From Bryum argenteum (Eukaryota > Streptophyta > Bryopsida > Bryales > Bryaceae), in assembly GCA_037043015.1 (NCBI GenBank), contig CM073325.1:6799001-6863000 (forward strand): DNA of 64,000 bases, given 5' to 3'. A program made the position numbers and the translations under genes. Positions 1-41,152 of this stretch are shown here, in pieces; within the stretch, counting starts at the first letter, position 1; each line of letters begins with the position of its first letter. The notes beneath the pieces were generated by a model. That model was not told the origin of the DNA and did not search any database. It saw only the letters and a list, made by a program, of their open reading frames with translations.

Positions 1-289
1 CATAGAACCTGGCACAATCGCACGCTCGCCGTGCCTCATCTACAGAAGCGTAATTTCCCATCCACATTTTCCATTTGAAACGTGGAGGCCTGTACTCCGC
101 CACGAACTTTTTGATATTCGGCCTGTACTCCGCCACGAACTTTTTTTTATCCGGCCTGAATCGTATTCCACCTTCCTTACAATCCACATCCTCGTTCTCC
201 CTGCATTCAAAAATGCCACTTGCAGTTTTGACAGTTAATTCAAGAACGACCAGAGCTTGCAAAACGTCCGGATCATAGTATAATGTCAT
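1..289 (-). CDS. AP2/ERF-like domain protein, 5' part, runs off left edge
   Basis: Reading leftwards from an ATG at 289, the frame stays open to the window edge (96 codons), with an in-frame TAG just upstream of the ATG. The second half resembles an AP2/ERF DNA-binding domain: a GIRFRP start, KKFVAEYRPPR strand, then KMWMGNYASVDEARRACDCARF, which matches the usual W-G-x-(Y/F)-x-(T/S)-x-E-E-A-A-R-A-Y-D pattern. Proteins of this family are nuclear transcription factors. A 33-bp in-frame duplication repeats the KKFVAEYRP strand, which is abnormal for the fold. The ATG lies only 76 bp past the stop of the hydrolase gene on the same strand. An AG acceptor at 201-202 could instead join the AP2 exon to that gene in phase. 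Domain call fairly sure; gene boundaries unsure. Confidence 0.6.
   Translation of the reverse strand, partial: MTLYYDPDVLQALVVLELTVKTASGIFECRENEDVDCKEGGIRFRPDKKKFVAEYRPNIKKFVAEYRPPRFKWKMWMGNYASVDEARRACDCARFY
87..145. repeat. 33-bp in-frame tandem duplication inside the AP2-like domain
   Basis: The 26-base block ggcctgtactccgccacgaa plus following Ts occurs at 87-112 and again at 120-145, a period of 33 bp. On the minus strand it encodes KKFVAEYRP twice, separated by N-I. It adds 11 residues to the beta-sheet of the AP2-like domain without breaking the frame. Confidence 0.8.
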
Positions 290-364
290 AGTTTCTAAAA
301 TCTATGTGTACGAGAACACGTAAGATATTTAGAACGTTACACCTTATGATAGAGTGCATGTGCC

Positions 365-3300
365 TCAGAGCTCTCGTGTCGTCTGAGCACCAACAAGTAT
401 ATGAGCACCAACAAGTACATGATAGGTATGACTCAAGAAGTTAGAGGAAATGTACTTGCTACGATCGCATGGTATATTAGAGTCGATCATCGGAAGGGTA
501 GCATGCTCAGGAGTCGCAGAGACAATGGCAGATCCGGAAGATCCTTCCTCCCGAAAGCTGAGGCTTTTGGCAGCTTCAAATAGGCCAACATTCTGAGCAG
601 GTAGATTTTTGGTATTTGAATAAATTTTAAACGGCTCATTCAGGCGTTGGCGGACATGCTCCAATAAAACCCTGTAACCAGTATGATCCTTTGAATTTGG
701 TCGGCAAACTTCGAAATGGTTGTCTTTATCAATCTTGTGCCACTCCCAGCTGTGTGCTGCTCCTTCACATGATTTTTCAGTGACCAAGACAGACTCCTGC
801 ACAAGGAAATCGAGAACGTTGGAGTTTCTATACTCTCGAGTGAAAATATTACAACGTGACCCAAAATATAGTGTACATGTAGCTCTACGGTCTCTCTTTG
901 CTGGGACAGACCCGTATAGTCGTTCGACCTCGACATTAGACAGAAGTTTCCCATCAAAACTGTAGACATTCAATAAGTTTGTGAGCACATGTAGACTTCA
1001 GGAGCTACCACTGTTAGTCGCTATGCACAACACCAATACACAATCACATTAGATACTGATAGTGGACGAAGTCGTGTAGATGGTCTTGATGAGATTTGGT
1101 GGGGTACCTTGCTCATGGGTTTTCCTTCAAGAAATGCAAGAATTTGCACCTTCTCTGGAAGCGCACTTTCAAAATCTGCGCTCAGCTTGTTCATGTCTGC
1201 AACAAAATGCGTGTCTCCCTCAAGCGAGTGCAGAAAGGAACTTTTTTTTAACGGAGTAAGCTTCCTGCATTTGGAGACGTAGGTCTCAAATTCCTGATCG
1301 GTAGAAGCATGAGGCACACTGTAAAATACAATCTTTGCCAATCCCTCCAAGAACTTCTCGCACTTCCAAGCCTCTAAGTGCTTTCCGATGTTGTTTTGAA
1401 TAAAGTGACGAGCCTTGGTAACCAAATATTTGATCAGCACACCTCCAAAACTATGGCCGATCAAGAATATCGCCTCCCCACTTTCACCAAGCTTCCACTC
1501 AGGGCTGCATATAAGTCACGACCGTATACAAATGATTAAATGATGAATCGAGTGTAAGCCTCAGGTGGATATGCACATACCTGCATTGCTATTCCAGTTT
1601 ACAAGTATGTATTTTCAGGCTATCTCAAAATCATGACAATTGCTCATCTGTGCATATAAAAATTGCTCGGATATAATTGCAAAGTTACACCAAGCGCTCT
1701 CGGTCCCCAACACCAGAATTCCAATTCAAATCATGACGATTTCTCTCCCCTACGAGCACCTGCTGGGAGTTAGCTTGTAAAGAAACAGTGATAGAGACCA
1801 CAACTGGATAGGAGGCTACCTGTGAACCAAAAACTTGACGAGATTCTCCCCTATTTCATGTCGATTGCAGATGTTGCTCAAACTTAAGTTCTCATCAAGC
1901 GACACAGAAAGGACGCGTATATTCTCTGCACCCAAGTCCTCCGGCAACCACTTTTGCGGCCAAATGAGCTTGTTGTCACGTGTCATCCATGTCCTCCTCC
2001 ATTCGTCAGGAACCTTGCGAAAACCGTGGAAGAAGATCAACGTAGCACGAACAGCAAGAAGAGAAGTGGGAATGTGGTCAAGTTGTGGATGCAGTTGATG
2101 CACGGCAAAGATCTGCTGAATCGAACTTTCCTGTACATTAGCCCCATTACAACGCATCAACCACGTGGCTCTTAAGTTACACAAGCTATAAAATGCGATT
2201 TATACAAAATGACAAGGACAGTCTACTATGGTGGTTTGCTGACATTACAGTCTTAAGATATCGTGATGGTTCGTGTTTCGTTCAAGTACTGTAAGATGTT
2301 GTTACCTCTTCACGGCCACAATCCGTCTCGGTTTGCACGATGTCGGGTTCCATGTTCTGGCTTGGGACAATGAAATCGTCACTATGATACCGTTGTATAT
2401 AATACTGAGCCCGCTCAAGCTCCTCAACAATTCTTGAGAACGTTGGTCGCGTTTTTAGACAACCAGCAATAATATACTTTAGAATAATCGGCGTAGTCTC
2501 TGGAATACTATACTCCGAGGTCTTGTCAGACCTTTTGTATCCGGTCAGTATCTCCAAACAAGTCAGACCGAATTCTGACGCTTTCTGACTCTCCGACTCC
2601 AGATGTGGCAGCCTTGAGCATCCAAAACCACCCAACTTTACAACTACATCACCCGGTCGAAAGGCCTCAGTCTTGTTCCGATCAGTCAGCTTGAACAGTA
2701 CATTGTCACGCTTGAGTGAATATGAGACGCCCATTTCATGCAAGTAAAGCATGCCTTTCGCTATTTGCAGCATCAAATCGACTGCTACATGAAGTGAGAG
2801 TGGAGTACCGCTCTTGGTCCTAAAAATGAGCTTGTCAAGATCACCGTCCAGAACCTCCATTACTAAAAACAGGTATTTCTCTTCAATCCAGAAGCCAATC
2901 AAGTCTACTACATGTGGATGTTGAAGGCGTGCAAGATCGGGTGGATTCTGGTCCACGATGTCACACCTCTTCAGTACGCAAGGCTGTGGATTTCCGCCAT
3001 CAGAGAAGCTAGTTCTTATAACATATCCACTAGGACTGACACTTAGCAAGTCGCGACTTAGGTCGATCACAAGGTTGTCTCCAATGAGATCTTGCAATCC
3101 AGATACCTGCGAAAAATGAATATTCAGTAGAGATAAAATTCTAGTTCATGTAACATGAAAGTTATCGACAAGTAAAAATGAAGATAACTAAGAGAGTTAA
3201 ATCATATTCAATTGATATATAGAATTCAATCAAAACCATAAAGTGAAGGCAAAAGATACAAATGAACCTGACATTGTATTCGTACCAAAAAAGAATCTTC

Positions 3301-3508
3301 AAATAATTGTAGTATGTATAATATTGAATCAAGATTCAAGTTTCACCTTGGGTGGCTTACTTAAATCAATTTTGAAGTCCCTCTTTGTCAAAACCTTTTC
3401 ATTAGAAGGGTAATTGTGCGTCAAAAAGAAGCTAGTACAACTCTTGCTAGAATCGTGCTCTATATTGATGTCATATGTTCCCACACTACTATCACTTGAA
3501 GAAACCAT
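365..3508 (-). CDS. pseudokinase-alpha/beta-hydrolase protein (left-arm copy)
   Basis: Modelled exons: 3508-3347, 3106-2306, 2112-1820, 1504-1108 and 796-365 (about 694 aa). All junctions have GT/AG and matching phases, and most match the right-arm copy at 28069-30863. Residues about 55-320 are a compact protein-kinase-like domain with a VLKR lysine. The HRD motif is replaced (SYSLKRDN) and DFG reads GGFG, so it is a pseudokinase. The next three exons are a SERAC1/DUF676-type alpha/beta hydrolase: an FFHGF oxyanion-type strand, the nucleophile elbow GHSFGG, and a late DNHFEVCRP histidine. Such hydrolase domains form the N-terminus of one bryophyte NLR class; here no NB-ARC follows. The start ATG is the first in frame. 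An alternative acceptor at 3494 would splice it to the kinase exon upstream instead. The last exon could also use donor 456/455 rather than its own stop. Confidence 0.7.
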
Positions 3509-3631
3509 TGAATTTTCAAGGCCAAAATTGCCTAATTATGCAACCATCATCGACTGCAATTGAACATCAAGCAGATAGTTTCATTTTTGTCATATAACTA
3601 ATCACATTTACTAAAATAGCTCATGTTATAC

Positions 3632-6143
3632 TCAAATTTGACGAACAACAATTGCTTGCAAAGAGTTGATCATGGTTACCTTGCACAAGCGCAACTTGCG
3701 TTGAATATGAGAGCCCCTCCATCTTTTCCCCCGAAGACGTTCGCAAACAACATCTACAATTTCTTCACGAAAGCCCACTTCTCCACCTCCATGATAAATA
3801 AAACCATTTATTCTTCTAAATGTCTTAAAAACTCCATACCACTCTTCAATGTCTAATCTCTTATCTTCTTTGGCCCATCCATGCCACACAGATTCCCACA
3901 TCTTCTTCTTCTCTACATCATGCACTTCTTCAAACGATATGTTAAGATACACCGGAAGAATCTCAAGATTTGGATTCTTTGTCATAGCTACGAATTCGAG
4001 CATTGGCCATTTTGATCTTGTGAAAAATTCCTCAGAGAGAACCACCACTCCAACTTCACACTGCTCAACCGCTTCAAATATAAGTTTTCGACAATTCTCT
4101 CCAACCGGTAGACTAGAACGTCGCCAATCGAAAACCGGGTATATACCACATTCCTCCAAGTCCACACACAATTGTTCCACGAAGTCTTTCTCGGCACCAC
4201 TGTGGCTTAAATAAAACTTGTGTTTTGCTAGAGCTGTAATTTCATTCCTACACATACAAACAAGAAATATGGCAGTTGATAATATGGTCCAAACTAAATA
4301 TCATTGTCGTGAGAACAAACATGAGAGAATAATTCTAGGTAATTTTAAAGCATTTGTAACCTCACTAATTCCAAAGTCCTGACCTTATTGCAATGCCACC
4401 ATCTGCTCCAGCCGCACTTGAAGCTAGAACTGAAGATTTGGACTGCATATTGTTAAAAATAATGTTTTCCAACTTTTTGTAAATAACTGAAAACTCAGGC
4501 CTTTGAGATCTATTTGCACTCCAACATTCCTCCACAAGATCAACCAACTCCTTTGGAGACACTCTTGGAAGAATCGGCCTCAACCCGTTCATTATCTCAT
4601 AGTAGAATTCACTTAAGGATCCTATGAAATCTCCAAATGGTGCCTCAAGAGTCAAAATATGTGAACAAGTCATAGCAAAACTATATGCATCTACTTTGAA
4701 CCACTCCACCTCTTCTAATCTCGAGTGTGCACTTGGCTGAAGCTCTGGAGCTATGCATAGATTTTGCTCAACTTTCCCCTTACGAATTGATCCATCGGGA
4801 TCCATCAATTTCACACAATAATAGTCCTCATGATATGGAGATCTCAATGTTCTCACAACCACATTGCTTGGTTTCAAATCACAATGTGCAAAACCATTTT
4901 CATGAAGAAATCTAACCCCTTCTGCAATTTGCCATATGATGTCAAGGGCAACTTCAAGTGAAAAGTTTATACCTTTCCGAGAAATTATCAACTCAAACAG
5001 GCTCTTCTCCATGAGCTCCATTGCAATAAAATCTTCTCCAATTCCCTCCCCGTTGCCACAACACATACAATCCACAATACGAGGATGCTTCAATTGTGTC
5101 ATCATCAATGCTTTCTCTATGAGCATAGTCTTGGGGCTCTTCACAAAAAATTCCTCAAAAAATTCCTTCTTTGCACAAGGCACCCCCAACCAACTTGTCT
5201 CTATTACTTGATTTCCATAACCAGCTCCAAAGAACTTGCAACTTCCCCATGTTCCCTTTGGCGTTTTCTTTTCCTCCCACAAAATTGATTCAAAGGCTTC
5301 TGTAGCATTAGTTTTCATTCCCTTATTAAACCAGGACTTATGATTGATCTTCTTAAACAAGAATCGAGCAAGATACTGCCTCTTCATAGAAAAATCTGGA
5401 TCTAGATCTGAAAAGAATAATCGAGAATATGAAGAAGTGCTATACCACCCCTCGTTTGCAAGGACTTCAAGCCTCGTCTTCACCTCTTCCTCATCTTCGT
5501 GACCATCCCCACAAGATTCAGCAACGTTCAGTGGGAATGCACATTGCATTGTAGAGGTAACTCCTGAATATTTCTTAGCACACTCAAGAATATTTATCCC
5601 CACGGAATTTATATGACACACAATATTTGTAAATGTTGCCGTATTACCAAGTTGAAAGACTGCAGCTGCACACCAGTCTTCTTCTCCACACTGCTCCACA
5701 AGTATATCTGCCTTCTTGTAATACCGATGCAACGCTGCCAAAAGTGGTGCGAAGGCGGGTTTGTACTTCCCGCAAGACTCCACTACCTCCCGGACGCATA
5801 CAATCTTGACTGAAAGCTTCGCTGCCAAAATCTTGCATTGCCTTCCATTCAATACATTCCCTCGTCTTACGACGCCCTCGATCTTCTGCACAATATCCTC
5901 ACACAATCGCACAAAGTCTACATCACCTGAGGACGAGCTTGAGCTATCCAGTTTCTGCCGCTTCAACATATTTCCAACCAGTTGGAGCTCGTTGATTTCT
6001 CGAGCGTTTCTATCGTGGTCGATAATTTTGTATGAATCGTTCCTGGCTCGCATCTTCTCAGCAAGCTCGTCCTCCATAGCTCGAATCTTCTCAGCACGCT
6101 CTTTCTCCATGGCTCGCATCTTCTCAGAATCCTCGTCTTCCAT
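3632..6143 (-). CDS. MLKL-like kinase fused to a TIR domain
   Basis: Exon 1 is 6143-4384 and exon 2 begins at 4247. The phase-2 junction AG/G gives I-R-N-E. Reading exon 2 to its own stop gives about 791 aa; an alternative donor at 3680/3679 leads to a stop within a few codons. The N-terminus is charged and repetitive (R-A-M-E-x-E). Residues about 75-190 form an all-alpha segment like DUF1221, the HeLo-type domain of plant MLKL proteins. Residues about 300-560 are a kinase fold with degenerate motifs: AKKEF, HCDLKPSN for HRDLKxxN, DPDG for DFG, and APE kept. Residues about 595-735 are a TIR domain with FYLSHSGAEKDF, a BB-loop-like segment, and SKWPMLEF holding the putative NADase glutamate. 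No NB-ARC or LRR follows. The TIR exon matches the one at 31957-32563 in sequence and phase. Likely role (inference): cell-death or immune signalling. Confidence 0.75.
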
Positions 6144-11164: not shown

Positions 11165-12619
11165 GCTTAATAGAATGAAATGTAAGCATCTCCATTCCTA
11201 CCTCGAGCAGGCAAGAAATGAGCATCACTCATATTCTTGTGAAACCGCGGCAACAGAATTCCTCTTAGCTGTGAGACGGGCCAAGTCCCTTGTGGAAAAA
11301 AAACTCTCACAGTAAATGGCTTCTCACAGCTTTGGAGCTCTGGGAATGTTCTTAACATTTTATGGAGGTGCTTACGGATTTATTCTGGTGGGCTGCCATC
11401 ATGAGTTCGGGAGGCAAAAAAATGGTTGAGGAGCGAGACGACAAGGGTAAAGAGCCAGTTGTAGCGAAGGTTGAAGAGAAGTGCCTTTCTAAGCAATTGT
11501 CTGAGGCACAGCGTAAAGACAAGATCACCTTAAGAAAAATGGTTAGAGCATTAGTGCAGAGCAACATCCTAAGGATAGGCGATCCAGAGCATCAACTGGC
11601 TATACTCTTAGATGAACGTCTCAGTGATCAAAGTATGTTAGATGAACGTCTTAATCATCAAATTATGGGGAACCCACCAGCAATTCTCGAGAAATTCTCT
11701 ATTCCTCGCGCAAGCAAGATCAAATCATGGTTCAGTAAGAGCTCGACCAAGAGTGGGCAAAATGGTTCTGTTCTTTCGTGTGAGTGGGTGTACAAGAAGC
11801 GTTTTGCTGTGAAGCTGTGCAAGCGGAGTACATTTAAAGCGGAGCGTGGTATGTTTAAGCATGAGTATGATATCTTGGATAAATGTCGTAGTCCTTTCAT
11901 AGTTGGAGTAGTAGGGTATTGGATTTAGGCGGAGATAGTAAAAATGGTATTTTGCCCATCCTTTTTATGGAAGAAATGGAGTGTGACTTCGAAGGGCTTG
12001 TCAAGAAAGCCAAAGAGCAGAAGTTACGAAAAGGAACGAAAGGATTCTCAGCGCTTGAGACAATCAAGTTGATGCTTCCTATAGCCAAGGCCCTTCGGTT
12101 TCTACATGGCGAAGAGGTAGATGTAGCTCATAGAGACATCAAGCCAAGAAACATCATGTGCAGCAATGTAAGCGCTAAGGACTTTGATGATGCCATTGTG
12201 AAGCTTCTTGACTTCGGTGAAGCCACATTTGAAGCCTCCAAATCCTTAAAAGTTGACAAAGTAGGCACATCTGGATACATGGATCCCGTGATGTCCATTA
12301 TAGATCCGAAGACAGGGAAGAGGAAGCCGTATGATGTGTTAAAGGCCAGGGCCCAGGAGTGCAGACGAAGCTGGATGCTGGAGAGAAACCACCGTTGCCG
12401 GATGATTTGCCAGAGTACTTGAGCTTCATCGTGCAGTGTTGCTGGTGGCGAGACCAACCTCGTCGGCCTTCATTCGAGGACATATGTAAAATGCTTCATC
12501 ATGCCAAGCTTTTGCTCCTTGATAAGAATTACTCTGATGACCTAGACAATCTATTTTGCTACGAGGATGAGGGCGGTATAAACCGCAGCTTTGGTGACCA
12601 ACGGTTTCTCCAATATTAA
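11165..12619 (+). pseudogene. broken kinase, paralogue of the 16.3-18.5 kb kinase
   Basis: The sequence follows the intact kinase at 16305-18541 through most of its length but has several lesions. One is a frame change near 11300 (run of A). Another is a CAA-to-TAA stop just before MEVLTDLFWW at 11362. There is a frame change and stop after GVVGYWI (about 11927), and a deletion near 12345 removing the DVFSFAVVFVELL region (subdomain IX). HRDIKPRN and DFGEA remain readable in the middle piece (11919-12422), and the tail PSFEDICKML follows in another frame (12359-12619). The 5' leader exons of the intact gene are not found upstream. It cannot encode a whole kinase. Confidence 0.85.
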
Positions 12620-16304: not shown

Positions 16305-18541
16305 CTAGGCCTGCAAAAAATGTCTGTCATCGATATTGCGTTCCATGCCGTCTCCATCCTCATAGCAGAAGAGGCCGGCACGATCGTTAAAGAAGTTCTC
16401 ATCATGGAGCAGGAGTTTGGCATTTTGAAGCATGGAGCATATGTCCTCAAATGAAGGCCGAGCATGTGGATCTGCACACCAACAACATTCCACAATGAAG
16501 CTCATGTATTCTGGCAATTGAGGAAGTGCGGGTCTCAGTCCACGATTTAGCATCTCTTGTACTGCTCTGCCGCGATCAATGCCGGTATCTCCCCAAGGAT
16601 GTCTCCAAGTCAGAAGCTCTACAAACACCACAGCAAAACTAAAGACATCAGCCTTCAACAAATCATACCCCTCGGGGTTCCTCTTCCTCCTCCTTGTCAT
16701 CGAATCCATAGTCCACATCGTGGGATCCATGTATCCATCTGTGCCTGCAACTCCGATTTCATCAAGTAGGACGTCTGAGGCATTTAATGTGGCTTCACCA
16801 AAGTCAATAAGCTTTACAAAGGAATCATCAAAGTCCCCACTTATATTGCTGCACATAATGTTTTGTGGCTTGATGTCTCTATGAGCTACATCTTCGCCAT
16901 GCAGAAACCGAAGGGCCTTAGCTACAGGAAGCATCAACTTGATTGTCTCCAGCGCTGAGAATCCCTCTGCTCGTAATTCCCTGTACCTTGTAATGAGCCC
17001 TTCCAAGTCAGACTCCATTGCTTCCATCAAAAGGAAGGGACAATTAGCCCACGGCCACAACTCAAGTTCCCAATATCCTACTACTCCGACTATATAAGGA
17101 CTACGATATTTGTCCAAGATATCAAACTCATGCTTGAACACATCCTCCACTATATCATTGTTCGGTTGCCGCATCTTCACAACAAATTCCTTTTCGTACA
17201 CCCACGGAAACCTCAAAACAACCCCATTCTGCCCACTCTTGGTCGAACCTTTCTTGATAAAAGTCAAGCTGCATCGGATACGAAATTTGAAATTCGTCAA
17301 AAATTGTGGTGACTTCATACTTCGACCATTAAGACGATCTTCTAGCAGTACAGCCAATTGATGCTCCGGGTCACCTTCTCGTAGAACGTCCTTCTGCAAT
17401 ATTGTTTCGACCATTGTTTCCAGAGTGTCCTTGTCACACTGTGCCTTCAACGATAGCTGAGAAAAAAATCTCTCTGCTCGCTCTTGCTGATCAATGGAAA
17501 GAGTTTCAAGGTTACAGGGGTTGTTGACTCCTAAGCTCATGATGTGAGCCCCCCAACATAAATCCATACCCACTTCATGAAAATGTTGAGAACATTCCCA
17601 AAGCTCCAAAGCTTTGAGAAGCCATTTGCTGTGAGCGCTTTCATCCACGAGGAATTTGGCCCGTTTTACAGCTAAGAGGAATTCTCTTGCCGCAAATTCG
17701 CAAGATTTTGGGTGATGCTTCCTTCTTTCATGCACGAGGTAGGATAGAAGAAGATCACATTTGTTTTTGTTTAGCCGCAGAAAATCTGCTTCAGCGTGCC
17801 AATCATTCTCCCTCCATGTCTGAAGAAGTTCACTTATGTAGAGGCAATCTGAGATGATATCTATGCACGATGCGTAATTACAACGGACAGATACATTGAA
17901 GTGAACACTCACATCAGGATTGCTCCTGGGAATTGGTTCGTCTCCTGTCGAACACCACATGATATTCAAATTAACTTAGTTAAGTAGTTTCAGAAAACCT
18001 GGGCCTCTACCAAACAAATAAATGCACGTGACTGTACTTCCTAGATATGTGTTGAACACTCATGAACAAGTAGATCCACAAAAGACCAGATTTTTGAGGA
18101 GTGGAGTAAGCAGGGGCAAGAGTGGAGATTGAAGAGTCACATACCATAGCATTCGTTGATGACTACAGTTTGACTACCACTGCAAGTCCCCTGCTTTCAC
18201 CGAAAACCACAAAAGTTCAGAAACAACGATAAATCACCTACTAGTGACTGCTGAAAAACCCTTGTGAGTGCCAATGGAAATTGGGCACTTTACAAATCCA
18301 AGCTGAAACCAAAGTGAAGGTGCTCACTTTTAACTAGGCAGTGGCACCGAAATGTCAACATTATCAGAAGCAATATTGAGTATGGAGGTATGAAAATCGA
18401 TACTCTTACAAGGATGTATCAACTAATAGTTTACAGAATAGAACTCATTAATTGACAAGAGGTAGTCTGAAACAGATTCCATCTACCATGATCCAAATGA
18501 ATACTCGAACTGATACAGTCCGACCCACTTACCTCATCCAT
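16305..18541 (-). CDS. intact protein kinase with N-terminal helical domain
   Basis: Modelled exons: 18541-18533 (nine bases, M-D-E), 18190-18145 and 17944-16305, giving 564 aa. Phases fit at both junctions. Residues about 25-160 are helical and cysteine/leucine-rich, like the four-helix N-termini of plant MLKL-type or NLR-associated kinases. The kinase domain (about residues 240-520) keeps every catalytic element: VVKM lysine, HRDIKPQN (about 373), DFGEA (about 399), a D-G-Y-M-D-P activation-loop end in place of APE, and DVFSFAVVFVEL. It should therefore be active, unlike the pseudokinases in the flanking arms. It is convergent with its broken paralogue at 11.2-12.6 kb, and a second copy of its 5' leader lies at 19.3-20.6 kb. 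Substrate and pathway unknown. Confidence 0.8.
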
Positions 18542-26010: not shown

Positions 26011-29000
26011 ATGATGGATTCAATGCGGTTTGAGTCATCAAGAAGTTTCAACCACGATGACAGGGCTCCTGAAATTGAAATTGAAATTGAAACTGACAAG
26101 TTCCAAACGGTTGGAAATTTGTCGAAGGGCCAGGAAGTTAGTGCAAGCTCGTCCTCAAGTGAAGTAGACTTTGTGCTACTGTGCGAGGACATTGTGAAGA
26201 AGATAAAAGAGATTTTGAAACGCAGAATTGTGTTGAATAGGAGACAATGCGATACTTTGGCAATGAAGCTCTCAGAAAAGGTTGCTTGCATCCGGGAGGT
26301 AGTGGAGTCTTGCGGGAGGGACAAAGACGCCCTTGAGCCACTTTTAAAAACGTTGTATCGATATTACCGGAAGGCAGAAGTACTTGTGGAGCAATGTGGA
26401 GGCGAAGACTGGTTAGTAGCAGCAGTTTTTCAACTTGGTAATACGGCTTCATTTTCATATATTGAGCGTCATATCAATCTTGTGGGAATAGGTATTCTTG
26501 AGCATGCCAAGAAATATTCAGCTGTACCCAGCACTACGAATCAAAGTGCATTCCTACCGGAAGTAGCTGAATCTTGTGGCACGAGGGAACTCAAAGATGA
26601 GGATGACCTGAGGGTGTTGCTTGAATCCTCAAAATCTTCCTTGTATTGGAAGAGCTTTACGAGAATCCTTTCACAGAAAGATTCAAAGTTGCAAAAAGAT
26701 TCAAAGTTGCATCTTGCTCGATACTTGTTGAAGAAGACACGCTTCAATATGAAAACTAAACCTTTGAGGCATTCAGAAAACAAGAATGAGTCAGGGATGC
26801 GGAAAGGTTCTTTGTTGAAGAAGAGGAACTATTATTCACTCTTCAAGCATAGAAGTGAACCTCATGAATGGAAAGTCTTGAAATCAATTTTGTGGAAGAG
26901 GAATAATGTGTCTTCAAGGACATGGGTTCAAGATTCCAAGTTTCTTGAAGATGGATATGGTCAAGGTTTATGGGAGACAAGTTGGTTGGGGGTGCCATGT
27001 GCTATGAAGACGTTTCATGTAGGTTTGAGGCCCATGTTCATGACGGAAGCATTGATTATGGCAAGGTTAAAATATCCTTCCATTGTGGATTTTATATGTT
27101 GTGGTTATGGATCTCAAAAAGGAGATCGATTTATTGCAATGGAGCTTATGGAGAAGAGCTTGTTTGACTTGATTGAGGAACGGGAAAGTAGTGGTGCTTA
27201 CTTTTCACTTGATGTTGGTCTTGATATCATATGGCAAATGGCAGACGGAGTAAGGTTTTTACATGGAGTTGATGTTGCACACTCTAAGTTGGAGCCCAAG
27301 AATGTGGTTGTGAGAACATTGGAATCTCCATACCATGAGGATTATTATTGTGTGAAATTGATGAATTTTGGAAGCTGCAAGGTGGAATATTTAAATGTGC
27401 AGACCCCAGCGGTAATGGATAAAATGAGGTGGTTTAAAAAAGATGCACATGACTTTGCCATGACTTGTGAACATGTCCTAAGTCTCAGTGAACCATTCAA
27501 GAATTTTTCAGAGTTGGACATACACAAGATTGTGATAGCGAAAGAGCAAAGGCCCAATCTCATAAGAGTATGTCACGAGTTGCTTGATCTTATGAAGGAA
27601 TGTTTGAGTGAAGATGTGACTTGGTTCCCCAAAATTTGTGAAAAGTTGAAAAATATTATATTGAACAATATGCTAATGCCTTTCCGTACGGTCCCTCCGA
27701 AGAACATCAATATGGGAGTGTATGACATCAAGGAAAGCCAAGACCAAACCAAGGAAGGAGACACTAGCTCCTCCACACGAGGAGAAGTTTCTCTTGTTGA
27801 TGAAATGGTTTCAACAAGGAGTGATTCCAAAAATGATGTAAGTTACTCATTGTGAAACTTGAATTATGTATCAATGTCATTCACATTAGAATTCCAAGAG
27901 GACAAAGTTTGGTCAACTCATACTTCTTGCATCTATTGCATGAGTTTGAGATTGAATTATGTATTTTAGGTTGCATGCTAACTTCATAAATAGTTGCAAT
28001 TTTTGATTGCAAGTACCTTCTCAATTGATCGATGAAATCAAGCTATTACTAAGTTTCATTTATTGCAGACATTTGGATTGCGGAATCTCATGGGGGACAA
28101 CTTTGTGATTGATCTGAGTAAGGATTTGCTTAGTGTCACTCCCAGTGGATATGTGATAAGAACCAGCTTCACTGACGGACATGGAGTATCACAGCCTTGC
28201 ATCCTAAAGAGGTGTGACGTCGTGGACGAGAGTCCACCCGATCTAGCACGACTTCAACATCCACATGTGGTGCATTTGATGGACTTTTGGATTGAAGAGA
28301 ATTTCTTGTTTTTAGTGATGGAGGTTCTGGATGGTGATCTCACAATGCTCATTCTGAGGACCGCGAACAGTACTCCAATCTCACTTCATGTAGCAGTCGA
28401 TTTGATGCTGCAAATAGCGAAAGGCATGCTTTACTTGCATAAAATGGGCGTCTCATATACACTTCAGTGTGACAATGTACTGTACAAGTTGACGGATCGG
28501 AACAAGACCGAGGCTTTTCGAGTGAATGATGTGCTTGTAAAGTTGGGTGGTTTTGGATGCTCAAGGCCGCCACATCTGGAGTCGGAGAGTCAGAGTGCGG
28601 CAGATTTCGGTCTGACTTGTTTGGAGATACTGACCGGATACAAAAGGTCTGACAAGACATCGGAGTCGAGTATTCCAGAGGCTACGCCGCCTATTCTAAA
28701 GGATATTATTGCTAGTTGTCTAAAAACGCGACCAACGTTCTCAAGAATTGTTGAGGAGCTAGAGCGGGCTCAGTCTCATATACAACGGACTTATAGTGAC
28801 GATTTCATTGTCCCAAGCCAGAATATGGAACCCGACATCGTGCAAACCGAGACGGATTGTGGCCCTGAAGAGGTAACATCAAATTCTTACAGTGCTAGAC
28901 TGAAACTCAAACCATCGAGATACTTGGTAGTTGTAGTGTCTTCAAACAACCATAGTCGACTGTCCTTGCCGCTTTGTTGCCGCTTTGTTTCGATGGCATT

Positions 29001-30863
29001 CAGTAATTTGTGTTTATGAGCCACATGGTTGACACGTTTTTCATGAGGCTAATGTACAATAAAGTTTGGTTCACCAGATCTTCGTCGTGCACCAATTGCA
29101 TCCACGACTTGGCGACACTTGCACTTCTGTTCGTGCTACCTTGGTCTTCTTCCATGGCTTGCGCAAGGTTTCCGAAGAATGGAGAGAGACATGGATGACA
29201 CGTGATAACACGCTTGTATGGCCGGAAACGTGGTTGCCGGAGGACTTGGGTGCAGAGAATATACGCGTCCTTTCTGTGTCGTTCGAAGAGAACCCAACTG
29301 CGAACAACAACTGCAATCGAGATGAGATAGGCAAGAATCTTGTTGAGAGTCTGGTTCTCAGGTAGTCTTCTATCCAATCGTGGTCCCTAAAAGCTGTTTC
29401 GAATTTCAGCAGTTGCTCGTCATGGTTTGGGATCAAATTTGTTTCGGAGGCCGGGAGAGTTCTACTATGGAATTGTATACTTCTGATGTCTTTGTCACGA
29501 TTTTTGGATAGCTTGAAAACATTCAGTCATGATTTGCTATAGCTTGCAGACTATGTGCATGATTGTGCTCTTGAGGCTCAGACGTGACTCATCATTAAAC
29601 CATTTGTCGTTTGTCGTTGCTTGTATATATGCAGCCCCGATTGGAAGCTTGGTGAAAGTGGGGAAGCGATTTTCTTGATCGGCCATAGCTTCGGAGGTGT
29701 GCTGATCAAATACTTGGTTACCGAGGCTGGAAACTCGATTAAGAACAACACAGGCCAGCAAGAGGCGCTGAAGTGCGCGAAGTTCTTGGGGAGATTGGCA
29801 AAGATTGTATTTTACAGTGTGCCTCATGCTTCTACCGGTCAGGAATTTGAGAACTATGTCTCCAAATGCAAGAAGATTGCTCCGTTGAAGCGAAGCTCCT
29901 TTCTGCAGTCGCTTAAGGGAGACACACATTTTGTTGCAGAAATGAACAGGCTGAGTACCGATTTTGAAACTGCCATGCCAGAGAAGCTGCAGATTCTTGC
30001 ATTTCTTGAAGGGAAAGCCATGAGCAAGGTACTTCACTAGATTCTTGAAGATTTTCGGATCTCATCTAGATCATCTAGAAGACTTTGTCTATTATCAATA
30101 TCTATTGTGATCCTACATCGAGATTGTGATTGCGCATAACGGCCAACAACCATAGCTCCTGAACTTGACATGTGGTCATGAGTTTACGAAGTGTATTTGC
30201 ACTTTTTGTTCATTCGCACAGAATTGGTAGAACAACAAATAAATCTGCTTCCTGGTATAGCTACGTGTTCCCTATATTCAGGGTCACCGTATAATATTTC
30301 ACTCGTTGAAGTACAAAAGCTTGAAGAGCTACTAAAGCTACATTTTGGATTTGCTTGTGCAGGAATTTGTCTTGGTTACCGAAAAATCATGTGCAATTGC
30401 ATCAAAGATCTGTGAGTGGCACAAGATTGATAAAGACAACCATTTCGAAGTTTGCCGACCGAATTCAAAGAATCATGCCGGTTACAAGATTTTACTGGAG
30501 CATCTTCACCAACATCTGGATGTACTGTCTAGCACACATGATTCAGATGTCACACCTATGCTTGAGAGACGTCAAAGTGACGACGTGTCCAAAGCTTCTG
30601 AAGCTTTTCCTGCTGAAAATGTCAGCTATCGGGCGGAGAGTTCCTCTGGATCTGCCATTTTCTCTGCGACTCCTGAGCATTCAACCCTTCCGAATAGCGA
30701 CTCTGATACAGAAAGCCATCGTAGCAGGTACATCCTCTCTTTCTTCTTCAGTGATACGTATCACACTCCTGGGTGTTCATGTTCTTCAGAAGACACTAAA
30801 GCTTCTAGGCACATGCAATCGATTGCTAGGTGTCAATTTAAAAGTATATGTGTTCTCATGTAG
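26011..30863 (+). CDS. four-helix-pseudokinase-pseudokinase-alpha/beta-hydrolase protein
   Basis: Modelled exons: 26011-27837, 28069-28872, 29078-29361, 29635-30028 and 30363-30863, phases consistent, about 1269 aa. Residues about 50-170 are the DUF1221/HeLo-like helical domain of plant MLKL relatives. Residues about 300-560 are pseudokinase 1: the HRD loop reads HSKLEPKN (no catalytic Asp) and DFG reads NFG. Residues about 615-870 are pseudokinase 2: the loop reads YTLQCDN and DFG reads GGFG, with almost no activation loop. Residues about 880-1170 are a SERAC1-like alpha/beta hydrolase with FFHGL, GHSFGG (Ser about 990) and DNHFEVCRP (His about 1130), so the hydrolase looks catalytically competent. 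The end is uncertain: either the stop at 30861-30863, or a conserved donor at 30727/30728 leading on to the TIR-NB-ARC-LRR exons. It is the inverted counterpart of the left-arm genes. Confidence 0.75.
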
Positions 30864-31328
30864 TGAGAGATTTTAGAGAGACAGTGATGTGATCTGCATG
30901 TCCTGCGGGTCTGGTTCTGTCCTGATTGCATTGTAAACAAGTCAGTCTGGTAAAAAAGGAGGTTTGAATTTGAAGCAAACCTACGTCGGAAAAGCATTAA
31001 ACCGTGGGCGTCACCTTCGGCTGGTTTCTGGGTCTCTACCTGCTGTGGACCTTGTGTCGGAGTACCTGGGTAGAACTTGGTCAGTGAACTTCGGAGGAGA
31101 GCGAGGATGATTATTTTGTGCCCAGTTCTTACATTGTAATCAGGTTGTGTGTCTGAGCAAATTGTGTGTGAGGATAAGTTGCACAATCAAGGTAGGTGTT
31201 TTGAAACTCCTTGGTCTGCCCGGCGTCACTTAGTTACATGCTACCGCTCAAAGGTGTTTGGGTTCTGTGAGGTCATAAGTATGTTATGTAGACGTGCTTA
31301 TTGATTCTTCGTCGTGGAGTACCCGTAG

Positions 31329-31398
31329 TGCTTCGAGATGGACAGAGATTGGCGGATGTGGAAAAGTAGATCTATCTGAGAAAGAAGATCTATCTGAG
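31329..31398 (+). other. candidate linking exon between hydrolase and TIR modules
   Basis: A 70-base segment runs from an AG at 31327-31328 to the strong donor GAG/GTGAGT at 31398. Entered in phase 2, as the donor at 30727 requires, it reads S-A-S-R-W-T-E-I then ending DLSEKEDLSE. It leaves in phase 0, as the next exon at 31650 requires. Its frame contains no Met back to the preceding stop, so it cannot start a protein. It is either a linker in a fused gene or a 5' untranslated exon of the downstream gene. Confidence 0.4.
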
Positions 31399-31613
31399 GT
31401 GAGTTTAATCCCCTTCCAATTTTGTGAATACTGAACTTAACTATCTTAGTTACAACTTCAATCCCGACATGGGCAAAGAGTTCACCATAATGATGATATT
31501 CTTATATTACAAAGAATGAAAAGTATATCATAGGAATTTCATGCATGATTTGAAGAATGGTTGATAGATTTACACAAGAGAATTGCTTCTAATTGAATCA
31601 AGGACTATGAAGT

Positions 31614-34600
31614 ATGGTAGGCTTTCTAATCTATGTTGATGAACTACAGCTACTTGAATCCGTGGATGTAGAAGCCGACCCTTCAAGTGACAATGACCAC
31701 TATTGGTGAGTTGTTGGTACACTGTTTTGTAGATATGGTAAAAGGTTTGAGTAGCATAGTAAAATATATGCATTATTTTGCTCTATCATGCGCTATCATA
31801 CGGCAATCTTATGTAAGAGCATTTGTGTTATATTTGAAAATGCAACTCTTGTTTGTGACAATTGTGGAGATAATGGAAGGATACATGAGCCATTGAATTC
31901 TTGGTGGTGGGTTTTTTGAGAATCATATGTGTGTTTTACATTTGTTGGTGTTGTAGGGAACCACAATTGGAACCAAAGCACAAGATATTCTTGAGCCATA
32001 GTTGGGCTCAAAAAGACTTCGCGGAACAATTGTGCCTGGATTTGGAAAGACATCATTATTATCCATTTTTCGACAAACAACGAGATAGCTTACCAAAGGG
32101 GAGAAAATTCTCGGAACTTATCTTCCACGCTGCAGAGCAATGTGATGTTGCGGTATTGATCTTGTCCGAAGACTTTTTTACACGTTCAAAGTGGCCCATG
32201 CTAGAGTTGGTGCGTTTTTCGGAAGTTCAGAAGGAAAACTCTAGTAGGCTTTCTATTCTCCCTGTATACTTGGGAGTATCACGAGATGAATGCACAAAGA
32301 ATGAGGCAAGACGTTCATATTGGCTCTCTATGTGGAGAAAGTGGGCACAAATTGACGATAGAATAGATGTTGACAAGTGGAAGGAAGCATTGGGAGTACT
32401 TGCTTTCTCAAGTGGAATTGAATATGTGAAGGATTTGGGAGAAGTTATGTTGAGAAAAGAGATTGTAAATGCTATACAACATTTGGTTCCACCACAAATG
32501 CATTGGAGTGCTAGTGAGGACTTTGTTCCACCTCAAATTCAAGGGTCAACTCGAATCTGCAAGGTAATTAAATCTCCTACTAGAGTGCAACTTGTGCACA
32601 ATTGAGAAAAAATTGCATGAGGGAAGTGTGGACATGATCTAACAAGGCATATTGAGGAACAAAAATTGTAGTCCAAGCAAGGGCTTGTATCTAATAAGGT
32701 GGTTTGTATTGTTGTGGTTGAATGTAGGTAATTATTGAAAAGTTTGTACAGACGAAACCGTCGCAAATGTATCACGCTCGAATAGTGGGTGTATATGGCA
32801 TGGGGGGAGTTGGGAAGACGACTTTTTGCAAAGTTCTTTGTAATGTACTCTTTACGAAGTTCCAAGGGAAAGTGTGTCATGCGGAATTGGGAATGAGAAG
32901 TTCATTTGAGTTGTGGAATCAAGTACGGAAGGATTTGACCAACATATATCATGGCGATTTGACGATCTTAACCGACAACGAGATGGTTTGAATCATTTCT
33001 TGCTATTGTAGAGTATAATGGCATCTAGTTGTGTAATATGTATTTGTGCTTCTTTTCTTTTCGTGGGGTTGAAGAGAGCACAAGGAATGATGTATATAAA
33101 CATCAAATGTGGTGGAATTTTGAGTTGGCTAAGGAGGAGAGTGATTGAATTGACAAACATGCTAATCAATTATCTTGTGTTGCTTTGGTACCATTGCAGG
33201 CTACAAATTTGGCAGTCAAAGAACGTATACGTCAACCAGTATTTTTAGCTCTCGACAATGTGTGCCAAGAGTCAATTCAAGAAGCCAATGGTTATTTAGA
33301 AGTGTGTGCCCGTAATGGTAGCATTGTGATGGTAACTGCTCGCACTGTCGATGTCCTTCATCGCTTAGGCATTGATGAAAGAGATCGCTTGGAAATGCCG
33401 GAGTTGGATGAGGAAGATGCAAAACAACTATTTCTCTATCATACAACTTGTGGAGTTGAATTCTTCGATGAAGATGATAACCAAAAAGTCTTACATTGTG
33501 TCAAACAATGTAAGTTTCATAAAGGTGCAAATATGGGTGAGCATTTTCATCCTTTAGCACTGCAGGTTTTGGGAGCTCAATTGGGAAGTTTGGGACCGTA
33601 TCCATCAATATGGATGGAGAACCTACAACAAAAACGTAATCAATTTGGAGAGGAGCACCCAATATTTAATGTCCTTCGAGGAGCTTATGACTCCTTACAG
33701 GAAGAGGATCAACTTTTATTTATGGACATTGTTCTCTTCAACTCATCTCAAAAATCGACTGGTTTTTACCATGTCAATCCTCTCTTAGGAGATATGCGCC
33801 AGATGTTTTATCTTGACATATACGAATGGTTAAGTATCGTACATGGAGTTCAAGTCCAAATTGTTAAGAATCGGGTAAGGACCTTGAGCCCTTATTCTCA
33901 TGATGAAGTTATAACGAGTTGGGTGCACTGTTTTTTACAAACTGCTCATGTACGTGAACATGTCAATAGTTTAATAAAGTTTTGGTTTCATGTGTGTGGA
34001 AATTTCAGTTGCAAGGTCTCAAGGCCAAGTCATTACTTCAAGATATTGGTGACACTTCTCATGGTGTGAGTATTCATGATTTGTATTTTGAGTTGATCGA
34101 AATGGAGGTGAAAAGTGGTGCTTGGGATACTGCACGTTTGGTGTGGTATAATGGGGAAGAAGCTCATCATTTGGTCCCTAGAGTGGGGCCAAGAGAGGAC
34201 TTCAAAAGATTTTCTTTGAAGTATGATGCCTCTGTGTATGTCTCTGGATGGAAGAAAACGCTTGAAGGAATCAGGTGGCAAAACTTATCTAAGGTTGAGG
34301 TGCTACAACTCTTCATTAGTGACATCGAGGTCTTGAATGTGGGAGATCTACCAAACTTGAAAAGCATGGTGTTGAAATGGGGAGACCGTGATATTCACCC
34401 TAATCACCATGTTAACTTGATCGGACTCAGGGAGTTGAGGAATCTTGGATGGCTTGAATTATGGAACATTCATCATGCATGCTTTGTGGAAATTGAATGG
34501 TTGACATCACTTCAGGTATTGCGGTTAGGTACATGGAGAAAACAAGAGAGAGGGCCACTATCACCAGTGATGGTTGCTCAACTACCAAATCTACACAGGC

Positions 34601-35088
34601 TCACAAAGTTGCAGGTTTTACAGCTTGATTCTATACCAATCAAAAGTTTACCAAGCCTCGAATGCCTTGCACTACTCAAAGCATTGTGTTGCACCGAACT
34701 GCATTTGGCAAGGTTACCGGATCTCTCGGGGTTATCATTGTTGGAAAGTATCGACCTTTGTTCGTGTCACGAGCTGACAACTTTGGATAACTTTGGAAAT
34801 CTACCTGCATTGAGGTATCTCAACGTCTTTGCTTGTTCCAAGTTAGAGAGGTTGCCGGATCTCAGGAGCTCCAAGAAACTTCGATTCCTTGTCCTATGCC
34901 GTAGTGGAATCCGCCTCTTCTCAAAAGACATAGCAATTCTCGCTAAATTGGAATTCAATGTGCGGGTTTTTGATGATGACCAGTTTAACTTTTCGGAGAT
35001 GTTAGAGAAGATGCCGTTCTTAGAGGTGGTGAAGATGATTGAAGCGCACCAAGTTAAATCCTCAATCACAAGTGAGATAGTGGGTTAG
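31614..35088 (+). CDS. TIR-NB-ARC-LRR immune receptor (TNL)
   Basis: Modelled exons: 31614-31705, 31957-32563, 32728-32985, 33200-33874 and 34009-35088 (about 903 aa if translation starts at ATG 31614). The TIR domain has KIFLSHSWAQKDF, DKQRDSLPKG, and SKWPMLEL with the putative NADase glutamate. The NB-ARC has P-loop GMGGVGKTT (about 257-265), Walker-B-like VFLALDN, RNBS-B VMVTAR, GLPL-like HPLALQVLG, and IHD in place of MHD. The LRR part has about ten repeats (LSKVEVLQL, LPNLKSMVL, LTKLQVLQL, LSLLESIDL, LPALRYLNV). Plant TNLs sense pathogens in the cytoplasm and signal through NAD+-derived nucleotides. An AG at 31648-31649 allows the first exon to start instead at 31650 and be spliced from upstream exons. 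In that case no Met precedes the TIR and the gene would have to be fused to the hydrolase gene upstream. Confidence 0.85.
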
Positions 35089-39453: not shown

Positions 39454-40578
39454 TCAATCTAGGTAGATGGGGCTTCGAGGTGAAGAGGAGTCATCATCCC
39501 CAAGGCCATCGAAATCTTGAGAAGGAAGTGGTGATTCAGGCGAAGATGATGGCGAAGCACTGCCGGAAGCTGTAGTGGTATTACCACGAGAATCTGAGAT
39601 TGGGGTGCGGAAACATGGGGTGCCAGTTGGACATGTACGCATCGGAGCCAGTTTGCTGGAAGATGCTTCCATAGGATTAGCAGTAACGTTTCGCAGTCTC
39701 TTGCGAGCATCCTCACCATCGTGCACAGACAGAGGGCTTGAATACCTCGGCGTTGGAACGTTCAGATTCAGACTGTGGTGGCCTCGAACCATGGCATCCG
39801 AGATCGGTGTCCGAGTCTCTGCAGGTTGCTTGTTTCGATCTTGCTTGACTCCAGCTTTCAGATCCATCACGGCCTCCACGAGATCGTCCTTGATGACCAT
39901 AAGCTCACTGATAGTATCGTCCATCTCACTGACATTATTTACCTCTGGTAATCGCTCCTCGATTACCTGCACCAGCTTCGCTCTCTTCCGAGCTTCAACC
40001 CTCAGTGCCTCGAGCACGCGCTCTTGATTCTTCTGAATCGCCTCCAATCCTGTCTGAAGCGCACTCAGTTGGGACTGCACCGATTCCTCCGCTTTCCGCT
40101 TCTGCTGTCTGCGGTCCTCCCTGGCAGCACGAGATTCTTCCGTCAGGCTCGAGATCTTGGCCCTGAGATCCTCGACTTGCTTGCGAGATTCCTGCACGTC
40201 CTTCATCGCACAACGATACGGATCCAACTTAACGCTGTCGGTATCATGGCCCGGCCACAAGGATAGAAACCCCTTGTGCCCGGCTGAATCGACACTTGGT
40301 ACCGGGTACAACACTGTTGTCCTTGGTGATGCTTCGGAAATATTCTCGGTCTGCGTCGAGGCTTGTGTTGTTGTTGTTGGCTTCTGCCATACCATCTCTC
40401 CGAGGCTCTCGAGGCTCATGTCGAGGAACTCTTCGAATTCCTTTTGCTTTCGCATCTCCTCTTGTGTTGGACGGTATGCTGGCGGTACTCCGTTTTCTTC
40501 TGTTGGTACTGTCGCTGGCGGTACTCCCTTTTCTTCTGTTGTTACTGTCGCTGGCAGTTTCGATGATGAACCACCCAT
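39454..40578 (-). CDS. coiled-coil protein with N-terminal myristoylation-like motif
   Basis: A single 374-residue frame. It starts M-G-G-S-S-S-K, a good N-myristoylation pattern (Gly2, Ser/Lys following), followed by a 12-residue near-repeat (PATVTTEEKGVP / PATVPTEENGVP). Residues about 130-250 form a long charged coiled coil (VEDLRAKISSLTEESRAAREDRRQQ and onward). The C-terminus is Ser/Pro/Asp-rich. A long 374-codon frame with a normal composition shift supports coding. A splice acceptor (ttttcag) lies about eight bases before the ATG, and a donor at 41153/41152 marks a probable 5' untranslated exon. I recognise no family. Membrane-anchored scaffold is a guess. Confidence 0.7.
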   Translation of the reverse strand: MGGSSSKLPATVTTEEKGVPPATVPTEENGVPPAYRPTQEEMRKQKEFEEFLDMSLESLGEMVWQKPTTTTQASTQTENISEASPRTTVLYPVPSVDSAGHKGFLSLWPGHDTDSVKLDPYRCAMKDVQESRKQVEDLRAKISSLTEESRAAREDRRQQKRKAEESVQSQLSALQTGLEAIQKNQERVLEALRVEARKRAKLVQVIEERLPEVNNVSEMDDTISELMVIKDDLVEAVMDLKAGVKQDRNKQPAETRTPISDAMVRGHHSLNLNVPTPRYSSPLSVHDGEDARKRLRNVTANPMEASSSKLAPMRTCPTGTPCFRTPISDSRGNTTTASGSASPSSSPESPLPSQDFDGLGDDDSSSPRSPIYLD

Positions 40579-41152
40579 GGTTGTTGCTGAAAATGATTTG
40601 CTAACTTAGCACACTGAGAAACAGAGTCAAGCCAATTTTCTTTCAGAGTTCACGTCAGTGAACGATGGAGTGGTTAATCTCCTTCATGCATACTTCAGAA
40701 GGATATGCATGTTAAACAAGACAAATTGATTCTCATCGTAAACAGATGTGAACATTCTGAACCTACATTAGAAGTTGAAAAAGAACATTGCCTTTGACTT
40801 CTTTTGTTACTCCAGGGGTTTGAATACACGAACACCTTAATCTAACATGACGAAGCCTTGACTGACATTCATTACAAGGAAGGTGAATAATTTCTGCTTT
40901 TATTCTAACACCAGAGAATGTAAACTGCATCAAATATATTCAAAGAAAGATGCAAGCCCGACTATAAAAACAGGAGAGCTTCTTCGTTTCTATCGAAATT
41001 AAGCGAGGTAGCTACCCTCTTATTGTTTCTAGCTTCAGATACATGTTAGTTGAAGAAAAAGAAAACTATGTCGTCTTGATTGAAACTACAGCAGCAAAGA
41101 TATAAGCCTTGCATTGAATCTTTGCAAAGGAGAACAGAGGAATAATGCGTAC

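What the first reader, a model, noticed from the sequence alone, without database searches (positions are those of the whole stretch)
26011..35088. Possible single gene: MLKL-like + two pseudokinases + alpha/beta hydrolase + TIR + NB-ARC + LRR
Seen: the hydrolase exon has a donor at 30727/30728 (phase 2). Candidate exons 31329-31398 (in 2, out 0) and 31650-31705 (in 0, out 2) then lead to the TIR exon at 31957 (in 2). Both candidate exons end in textbook GTGAGT donors. Joined, the eleven exons total 6420 bases, an unbroken frame of about 2139 residues. If the acceptor at 31649 is used, no Met precedes the TIR, so the TIR-NB-ARC-LRR part would need upstream coding exons. Known: kinase, hydrolase and TIR are separate N-terminal classes of bryophyte NLRs. 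I know of no NLR with all of them together.
Basis: partly seen in the sequence, partly recalled or inferred. Interest (0 to 1): 0.88.

Follow-up and report, generated by a model that had tools for sequence, protein, structure and literature searches.

The report
Moss immune receptor fused to MLKL genes
In a plant genome whose closest annotated relatives are moss proteins, an immune-receptor gene that has lost its own start codon sits in frame behind a cell-death-type protein, a second inactive kinase and a hydrolase, so the receptor is probably made as the tail of one giant fused protein, although no RNA evidence was available to prove it.

Summary
The eleven exons are there as described and join into 6420 bases, 2139 residues, with no internal stop. 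The open frame alone proves little: 234 of 300 random gaps of like composition could also be bridged in frame. Comparison with relatives is stronger. Of 12 related TIR-NLR copies on C8, 11 have a first coding exon with ATG; this locus has none in frame. Intron 5 is chimeric: its front matches a sister gene in the same window, its back the 5' region of free-standing TIR-NLRs. The sister gene and a Ceratodon protein continue from the hydrolase into an AP2-like domain that is missing here. A C3 relative, grouped with this one in the TIR tree, also has kinase exons in phase upstream of its TIR exon. The TIR and NB-ARC here look selectively maintained. So the receptor has most likely been captured by the upstream gene (about 0.6). 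The full 2139-residue product is less sure (about 0.4), because several relatives of the MLKL exon read through the supposed donor to a stop. Evidence is genomic only; transcripts must decide.

The parts
26011..27837 (+). Exon 1: MLKL-like protein (predicted helices 54-169, then pseudokinase; HSK for HRD, NFG for DFG)
27838..27855 (+). Read-through tail VSYSL and stop if exon 1 is not spliced; aligned by eye with the VSKL.IVKLES stop of other MLKL copies
28069..28872 (+). Exon 2: second MLKL-type pseudokinase (PK2; GFG for DFG, no catalytic Asp)
29078..29361 (+). Exon 3: alpha/beta-hydrolase-like part 1
29635..30028 (+). Exon 4: alpha/beta-hydrolase-like part 2 with GHSFGG
30363..30727 (+). 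Exon 5: hydrolase end (DNHFEVCRP) and tail; phase-2 donor at the place where paralog B can be joined to an AP2-like exon
30728..31328 (+). Intron 5, chimeric: to 30877 homologous to paralog B exon5/intron5, from 31037 homologous to the 5' region of free-standing TIR-NLRs; junction 30878-31036
31329..31398 (+). Exon 6: 3' part derived from the first coding exon of TIR-NLRs; start codon lost or out of frame
31650..31705 (+). Exon 7: small exon shared with the TIR-NLR family (LLESVDVEADPSSDNDHYW)
31957..32563 (+). Exon 8: TIR domain, WPMLEL with the putative catalytic Glu
32728..32985 (+). Exon 9: NB-ARC with P-loop GMGGVGKTT
33200..33874 (+). Exon 10: NB-ARC, rest
34009..35088 (+). Exon 11: SIHDL motif and weak LRRs, stop
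4384..6143 (-). Paralog B: MLKL-like exon, in phase with the TIR exon at 3680-4247
3680..4247 (-). Paralog B: TIR exon without an in-frame start codon before the TIR
2306..3106 (-). Paralog B: PK2 exon (81% identical to exon 2; no Met near its start)
456..2112 (-). Paralog B: hydrolase exons
1..199 (-). Paralog B: AP2-like exon (below Pfam's cut-off) in phase after the hydrolase; runs on outside the window

Best explanation
A TIR-NB-ARC-LRR gene was captured by a PK2-hydrolase gene. Recombination inside intron 5 replaced the ancestral AP2-like exon with the 5' region and body of a TIR-NLR. The old hydrolase donor (30728) then splices to the TIR-NLR's first-exon acceptor (31328), or directly to the TIR exon. 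The TIR-NLR's own in-frame start codon has gone, so the receptor is made as the C-terminal part of a fusion carrying at least PK2 and hydrolase, and probably the MLKL exon too. Proposed action (inferred): LRR/NB-ARC senses and oligomerises, the TIR makes an NAD-derived signal, and the N-terminal MLKL helix bundles are brought together at the membrane. Shown: exons, homologies, the chimeric intron, the absent in-frame start, low dN/dS. Inferred: the transcript, the protein and its action. Confidence is for PK2-hydrolase-TIR-NLR in one transcript; for all eleven exons about 0.4.
For: First coding exon with ATG and donor in 11 of 12 C8 copies (10 by script; L044 by eye; none found within 1.5 kb for L050), not found here; ATG 31338 and 31356 are out of frame and meet a stop. 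Chimeric intron 5. Paralog B has a GT at the same hydrolase position and an AP2-like exon in phase behind it, and Ceratodon P0004 is PK2-hydrolase-AP2-like (both AP2 matches below Pfam's cut-off, B's splicing inferred, P0004's gene structure not seen); no AP2 match under E 4 in the window outside 1-199. In a TIR tree of 13 sequences A, C3a and C3b group with support 1.000; at C3 a kinase exon and a PK2-tail exon lie in phase upstream of the TIR exon. A's TIR after the split from C3a: dS 0.45, dN 0.064, ratio 0.14 (bootstrap 0.07-0.34); NB-ARC branch ratio 0.26 (0.12-0.66). A against B: PK2 ratio 0.45 (p 6e-4), hydrolase 0.41 (p 2e-7), MLKL 0.56 (p 1e-6). In B the PK2 exon has no Met near its start, so it needs an upstream exon; the MLKL-PK2 gap is 231 b in A and 240 b in B.
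Against: No transcript. Acceptor 31328 (gtggagtacccgtag) looks the weakest of the set by eye. The locus still carries sequence homologous to the 5' region of free-standing TIR-NLRs (31037-31341), so a separate promoter may survive. An in-frame bridge is easy by chance. Four MLKL copies reach their own stop just past the exon 1 donor position. None of the four Ceratodon PK2-hydrolase proteins found has a TIR or NB-ARC match. C3 is partly degenerate (NB-ARC in pieces; C3a branch ratio 0.89, but with bootstrap 0.32-13.6), and its PK2-tail exon holds an in-frame ATG.
Confidence: 0.6

Rival explanations
1. Two or three neighbouring genes: MLKL (26011-27855), PK2-hydrolase (to the stop at 30861-30863) and a TIR-NLR with a new start, e.g. 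ATG 31614 from a transcription start inside the former intron.
For: Each unit has an open frame by itself; ATG 31614 opens MVGFLIYVDELQ in frame with exon 7; TIR-NLR 5' sequence is still present; four MLKL copies end just past the exon 1 donor position.
Against: ATG 31614 is ATA at C3 and a stop follows there (by eye); the start would have to lie in what is an intron in the relatives; the stop at 30863 lies in sequence homologous to paralog B's exon5/intron5 stretch; the B PK2 exon has no Met near its start.
Confidence: 0.25
2. The TIR-NLR here is a start-less relic: transcribed or not, it makes no receptor, and the upstream gene ends near 30863.
For: No in-frame AUG in its own first exon; C3, its closest relative in the TIR tree, is partly degenerate.
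Against: 873 codons of TIR-NB-ARC-LRR remain open with P-loop, TIR Glu and SIHDL motif; low dN/dS on the A branch for TIR and NB-ARC, although the branch may include time before the start was lost.
Confidence: 0.1
3. The fusion is real but the upstream module is an integrated decoy: the MLKL-pseudokinase-hydrolase part baits pathogen effectors and the TIR-NLR does the signalling. (Concerns mechanism, so it does not exclude the gene structure above.)
For: Both kinases look catalytically dead; kinases and transcription factors are reported as integrated domains of non-flowering plant NLRs (PMC11218826, passages).
Against: The hydrolase keeps GHSFGG and the His motif and, with PK2, evolves under constraint; the helix bundle is predicted to be kept.
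Confidence: 0.3

Closest known systems
TIR-NB-ARC-LRR receptors (TNL) of mosses
   Same: TIR, NB-ARC, LRR order; phase-0 intron between NB-ARC and LRR exons; 12 C8 copies 67-70% identical in the TIR; Ceratodon P0003 38% over 857 residues
   Different: In-frame start lost; preceded in phase by MLKL, PK2 and hydrolase exons; TIR/NB-ARC intron is phase 0, whereas PMC3352924 (passages) gives phase 2 for TNLs
PK-NBS-LRR (moss) and hydrolase-NBS-LRR (liverwort) classes, PMC3352924
   Same: Kinase or hydrolase N-terminal to an NLR; phase-0 intron before the NBS; exon shuffling proposed by those authors
   Different: As described there each carries one N-terminal domain; here MLKL, PK2, hydrolase and TIR would be together
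Plant MLKL proteins (AtMLKL2/3, PDB 6lba, 6ka4)
   Same: Exon 1 matches over helix bundle and kinase
   Different: Here perhaps followed by further exons; four related copies in this genome end in a stop there
Ceratodon purpureus M758_7G098500 (P0004)
   Same: PK2-hydrolase, 56% identity over 98% of the region
   Different: Continues into an AP2-like domain (below cut-off), no TIR-NLR

Membership tests
TNL | TIR-NB-ARC-LRR order with intact P-loop | tested here: met
   (LRR matches below Pfam's cut-off)
TNL | Phase-2 intron between TIR and NBS (as stated in PMC3352924, passages) | tested here: not met
   phase 0 here
TNL | TIR NADase activity | not testable with these tools
   putative Glu in WPMLEL present (role recalled)
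TNL | Own start codon upstream of the TIR | tested here: not met
   none in frame in exons 6-7 or by joining 31191 to 31329; ATG 31614 in the intron remains possible
Plant MLKL | N-terminal four-helix bundle plus kinase homologous to AtMLKL | tested here: met
   profile E 5.3e-55 over both parts; model helices 54-169, block pLDDT up to 92, whole-model mean only 60; Foldseek ranks 1-2
Plant MLKL | Tetramer and membrane activity | not testable with these tools
   none
Alpha/beta-hydrolase NLR domain (HNL type) | Hydrolase family match over the curated cut-off | tested here: inconclusive
   PF12697 18.4 bits against 26.3; GHSFGG and His motif invariant in 5 sequences; one PDB match, E 0.1
HNL / PNL | Hydrolase or kinase directly before NB-ARC | tested here: not met
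   TIR lies between
NLR with integrated decoy | Integrated domain binds an effector | not testable with these tools
   none

The most novel reading that the evidence does not exclude
One 2139-residue protein joins an MLKL-type pore former, a second pseudokinase, a hydrolase and a complete TIR-NB-ARC-LRR receptor: a sensor and a candidate cell-death executor in one chain, built by exon capture after the receptor lost its own start codon.
Probability: 0.38. Interest if true: 0.86.

Novelty: new variant of a known kind. Interest (0 to 1): 0.7.

Why it matters
[quoted passage not shown] A natural fusion of MLKL and TNL would be direct evidence that the two work together, and gives a ready test object. 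The locus also shows a stage of NLR class formation: relatives with AP2-like, TIR or TIR-TIR exons around the same modules, and a traceable exchange point inside an intron.

Tried and rejected
Rejected: the unbroken frame as evidence by itself. Rejected as ancestral: ATG 31614 (by eye). Rejected: a start in the presumed 5' exon of the TIR-NLR; joining 31191 to 31329 gives no in-frame AUG. Left open: exon 1/exon 2 as two genes. Led nowhere: structure of the PK2-hydrolase family from P0004 (mean pLDDT 39, not searched further); PDB profile search with the hydrolase (one hit, E 0.1); sequence behind the C6 MLKL copy (L071: no match to the gene's segments); L073 (C7) was fetched and not analysed. 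The TIR part was computed with this locus out of frame and is discarded; one search repeats it. In one search, 10 of the 12 C8 copies were used for the TIR; L045 (short hit) and L048 (in-frame stops) were left out; in the NB part, L045 was left out. Genome searches score only the best candidates (72 of 270, 74 of 171, 71 of 207), so copy counts are lower bounds. Protein searches: 3 hits among 4386 candidates, 4 among 7987, capped, 33 among 7931; they need shared 5-residue words and the database's cover of mosses is unknown to me. Novelty searches: in one open-access library; passages of PMC11218826, PMC7145615, PMC3352924, PMC9950082 and PMC9104254 seen, none in full; subscription journals and preprints not covered.
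Full report
Setting. The window is C5:6799001-6863000 of an unnamed 258.8 Mb assembly in 25 contigs. The proteins found for the PK2-hydrolase region all come from the moss Ceratodon purpureus, so a moss is likely; the species was not determined.

Observation. The eleven exons with phases and GT/AG ends were verified. The joined CDS has 6420 bases and 2139 residues with no internal stop. Pfam finds two kinase domains, TIR and NB-ARC over their cut-offs; LRR and hydrolase matches are below theirs. Exon 1 is MLKL-like: best single-sequence PDB matches are 6lba and 6ka4, a 24-sequence profile matches 6lba from helix bundle to kinase (E 5.3e-55), and the AlphaFold model (mean pLDDT 60, helix bundle better) has AtMLKL3 and AtMLKL2 as Foldseek ranks 1 and 2. 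A profile of four Ceratodon PK2-hydrolase proteins also has plant MLKLs as best PDB match, over the PK2 kinase. Both kinases lack catalytic residues: HSK and NFG in exon 1, no Asp and GFG in PK2. The hydrolase keeps GHSFGG and DNHFEVCRP; the TIR keeps the Glu in WPMLEL; NB-ARC keeps GMGGVGKTT and SIHDL (motif roles recalled).

Chance. In 300 first-order Markov sequences of the 1229-base gap, 234 allowed an in-frame bridge of one or two exons under the same splice-site rules. The frame alone is therefore no argument. Exon 5 also joins the TIR exon directly in frame.

The TIR-NLR part by itself. Twelve C8 copies (L040-L048, L050-L052; TIR 67-70% identical) were compared over 1.5 kb upstream of the TIR. 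The homologue of exon 7 was found by script in 8 of 12 (L040, L041, L045-L048, L050, L051) and by eye in L043, L044 and L052; L042 has similar sequence without AG at the acceptor. A short first coding exon with ATG and donor, such as MKRRRGSEVDLSE|gtaagt, is present in 11 of 12 (10 by script; L044 by eye); L050 shows none there. L057 on C2 has one too. Exon 6 here is homologous to the 3' part of that exon, but the ATG is gone or shifted: ATG 31338 and 31356 are in the wrong frame and soon meet a stop, and the right frame is open back past acceptor 31328 to a stop at 31276 with no Met. Joining the presumed 5' exon end 31191 to 31329 gives no in-frame Met either. Window 31037-31341 is homologous to the 5' region of free-standing copies (L052 69% over 310 b, L047 67% over 313 b).

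The upstream gene. PK2-hydrolase was found at three C5 places: here (A), on the minus strand of the same window (B, PK2 81% identical) and at C5:6776186-6778621 (C); more distant hydrolase matches lie on C4 near 23.70 Mb (34-40% identity). B has a GT at the same hydrolase position (CAA|gtacat) and an AP2-like exon in phase behind it (Pfam AP2 25.7 against 33.3 bits). Ceratodon P0004 is PK2-hydrolase-AP2-like (25.8 bits), so AP2 is the likely ancestral end. C ends in a stop without AP2, yet its last residues resemble the tail that follows AP2 in P0004 (by eye). Of the other Ceratodon proteins, P0001 ends in a kinase related to exon 1's, P0002 has a weak ankyrin match, P0005 starts with DUF7748; none of the four has a TIR or NB-ARC match. 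In A no AP2 match is seen. A matches B over 30700-30877 and TIR-NLR 5' sequence from 31037, which places the exchange inside intron 5.

A second locus. C3:22952403-22956762 (minus strand) has a kinase exon with HRD and DFG (28% to exon 1's kinase), then an exon homologous to the tail of PK2, then the exon 7 homologue, then two TIR domains in one exon. All are in phase. Its TIRs and A's group with support 1.000 in a 13-sequence tree. C3 looks degenerate behind the TIRs: a stop ends the second TIR and NB-ARC lies in pieces. Its PK2-tail exon contains an in-frame ATG. B also joins an MLKL-like exon in phase to a TIR exon, with flanks resembling a C4 TIR-NLR (L064, by eye). So TIR exons in phase behind kinase exons, without the usual ATG exon, occur at three loci in this genome.

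Selection. After the split from C3a, A's TIR has dS 0.45, dN 0.064, ratio 0.14 (bootstrap 0.07-0.34); measured against the C8 groups instead it is 0.27 (0.13-0.71); C3a has 0.89 (0.32-13.6, so poorly determined). A's NB-ARC branch has 0.26 (0.12-0.66), like the C8 groups (0.28, 0.21). A start-less relic would not be expected to look like this unless the loss is recent; the branch also covers time before the loss if the loss at C3 was independent. Between A and B the ratios are 0.45 (PK2), 0.41 (hydrolase) and 0.56 (MLKL), each below 1 by Fisher's test; introns are 71-78% identical over aligned positions.

Exon 1 to exon 2. For: the PK2 exon of B has no Met near its start, so it needs an upstream exon, and the tail exon that fits in phase is the MLKL tail; A and B share the arrangement with gaps of 231 and 240 b. 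Against: nine MLKL copies were examined. In seven the donor position reads GTN-AGY (L010, L011, L013, L016, L017, L019, L024), which is also Val-Ser; two of these (GTC, GTT) are poor donors. Four (L016, L017, L019 on C7, L024 on C3) continue into the shared tail VSKL(S/P/L)IVKLES and a stop; L010 and L013 reach other stops, L011 stays open longer, and in L012 and L021 the match ends before the site. B carries SKPPKVKLES and a stop too (by eye). In A the tail is shifted (VSYSL, stop). I put this junction at about 0.65, hence about 0.4 for the whole chain.

Mechanism. Inferred only. Some TNLs form tetrameric resistosomes (PMC9950082, passage), and the solved AtMLKLs are titled tetramers. A fusion would place several helix bundles on one receptor assembly. 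The TIR would supply the NAD-derived signal and the LRR the recognition. The decoy reading is a serious alternative.

Known context. PMC3352924 (abstract and passages) describes PNL in moss and HNL in liverwort and suggests exon shuffling. PMC11218826 (passages) lists TIR-, hydrolase- and kinase-type NLRs, MLKL as an NLR-associated protein, and an expansion of integrated domains in mosses including Ceratodon. In the listings and passages I saw no receptor combines MLKL, hydrolase and TIR.

Noticed in passing
window 1-6143, minus strand: Paralog B: MLKL-like exon in phase with a TIR exon, then PK2-hydrolase-AP2-like; the order of modules differs from the finding's locus.
   Followed up: yes
G000:C3:22952403-22956762 (L054, L055, L072, L074): Kinase exon, PK2 tail, TIR-TIR in phase, NB-ARC degenerate.
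   Followed up: yes
G000:C5:6776186-6778621 (L070): Third PK2-hydrolase copy, ending in a stop without AP2 but with a tail like the one after AP2 in Ceratodon P0004.
   Followed up: partly
window 16305-17975 minus; 11356-12422 plus: Further kinase frames with HRD and DFG residues, perhaps MLKL-like (one 556-aa frame, Pkinase E 5e-29; the other in two overlapping frames, not searched).
   Followed up: partly
G000:C5:16738038-16739966, minus: TIR and kinase matches both reported in an open frame of 855 aa: possibly a TIR-kinase protein in one exon.
   Followed up: no
MLKL copies L016, L017, L019, L024 and window 27838-27870: The stretch around the MLKL stop (GTGAAACTTGAATCTTGATTC) looks, by eye, more alike between copies than the coding part; reason unknown.
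   Followed up: no
P0006 (505 aa, contig of 2787 b): Close relative of exon 1 (72%) in a public assembly; its contig could not be read here and may show what follows exon 1.
   Followed up: no
window 39454-40602, minus: Long frame with a weak, sub-cut-off match to Syntaxin 6 N-terminal (E 1.4e-4).
   Followed up: no
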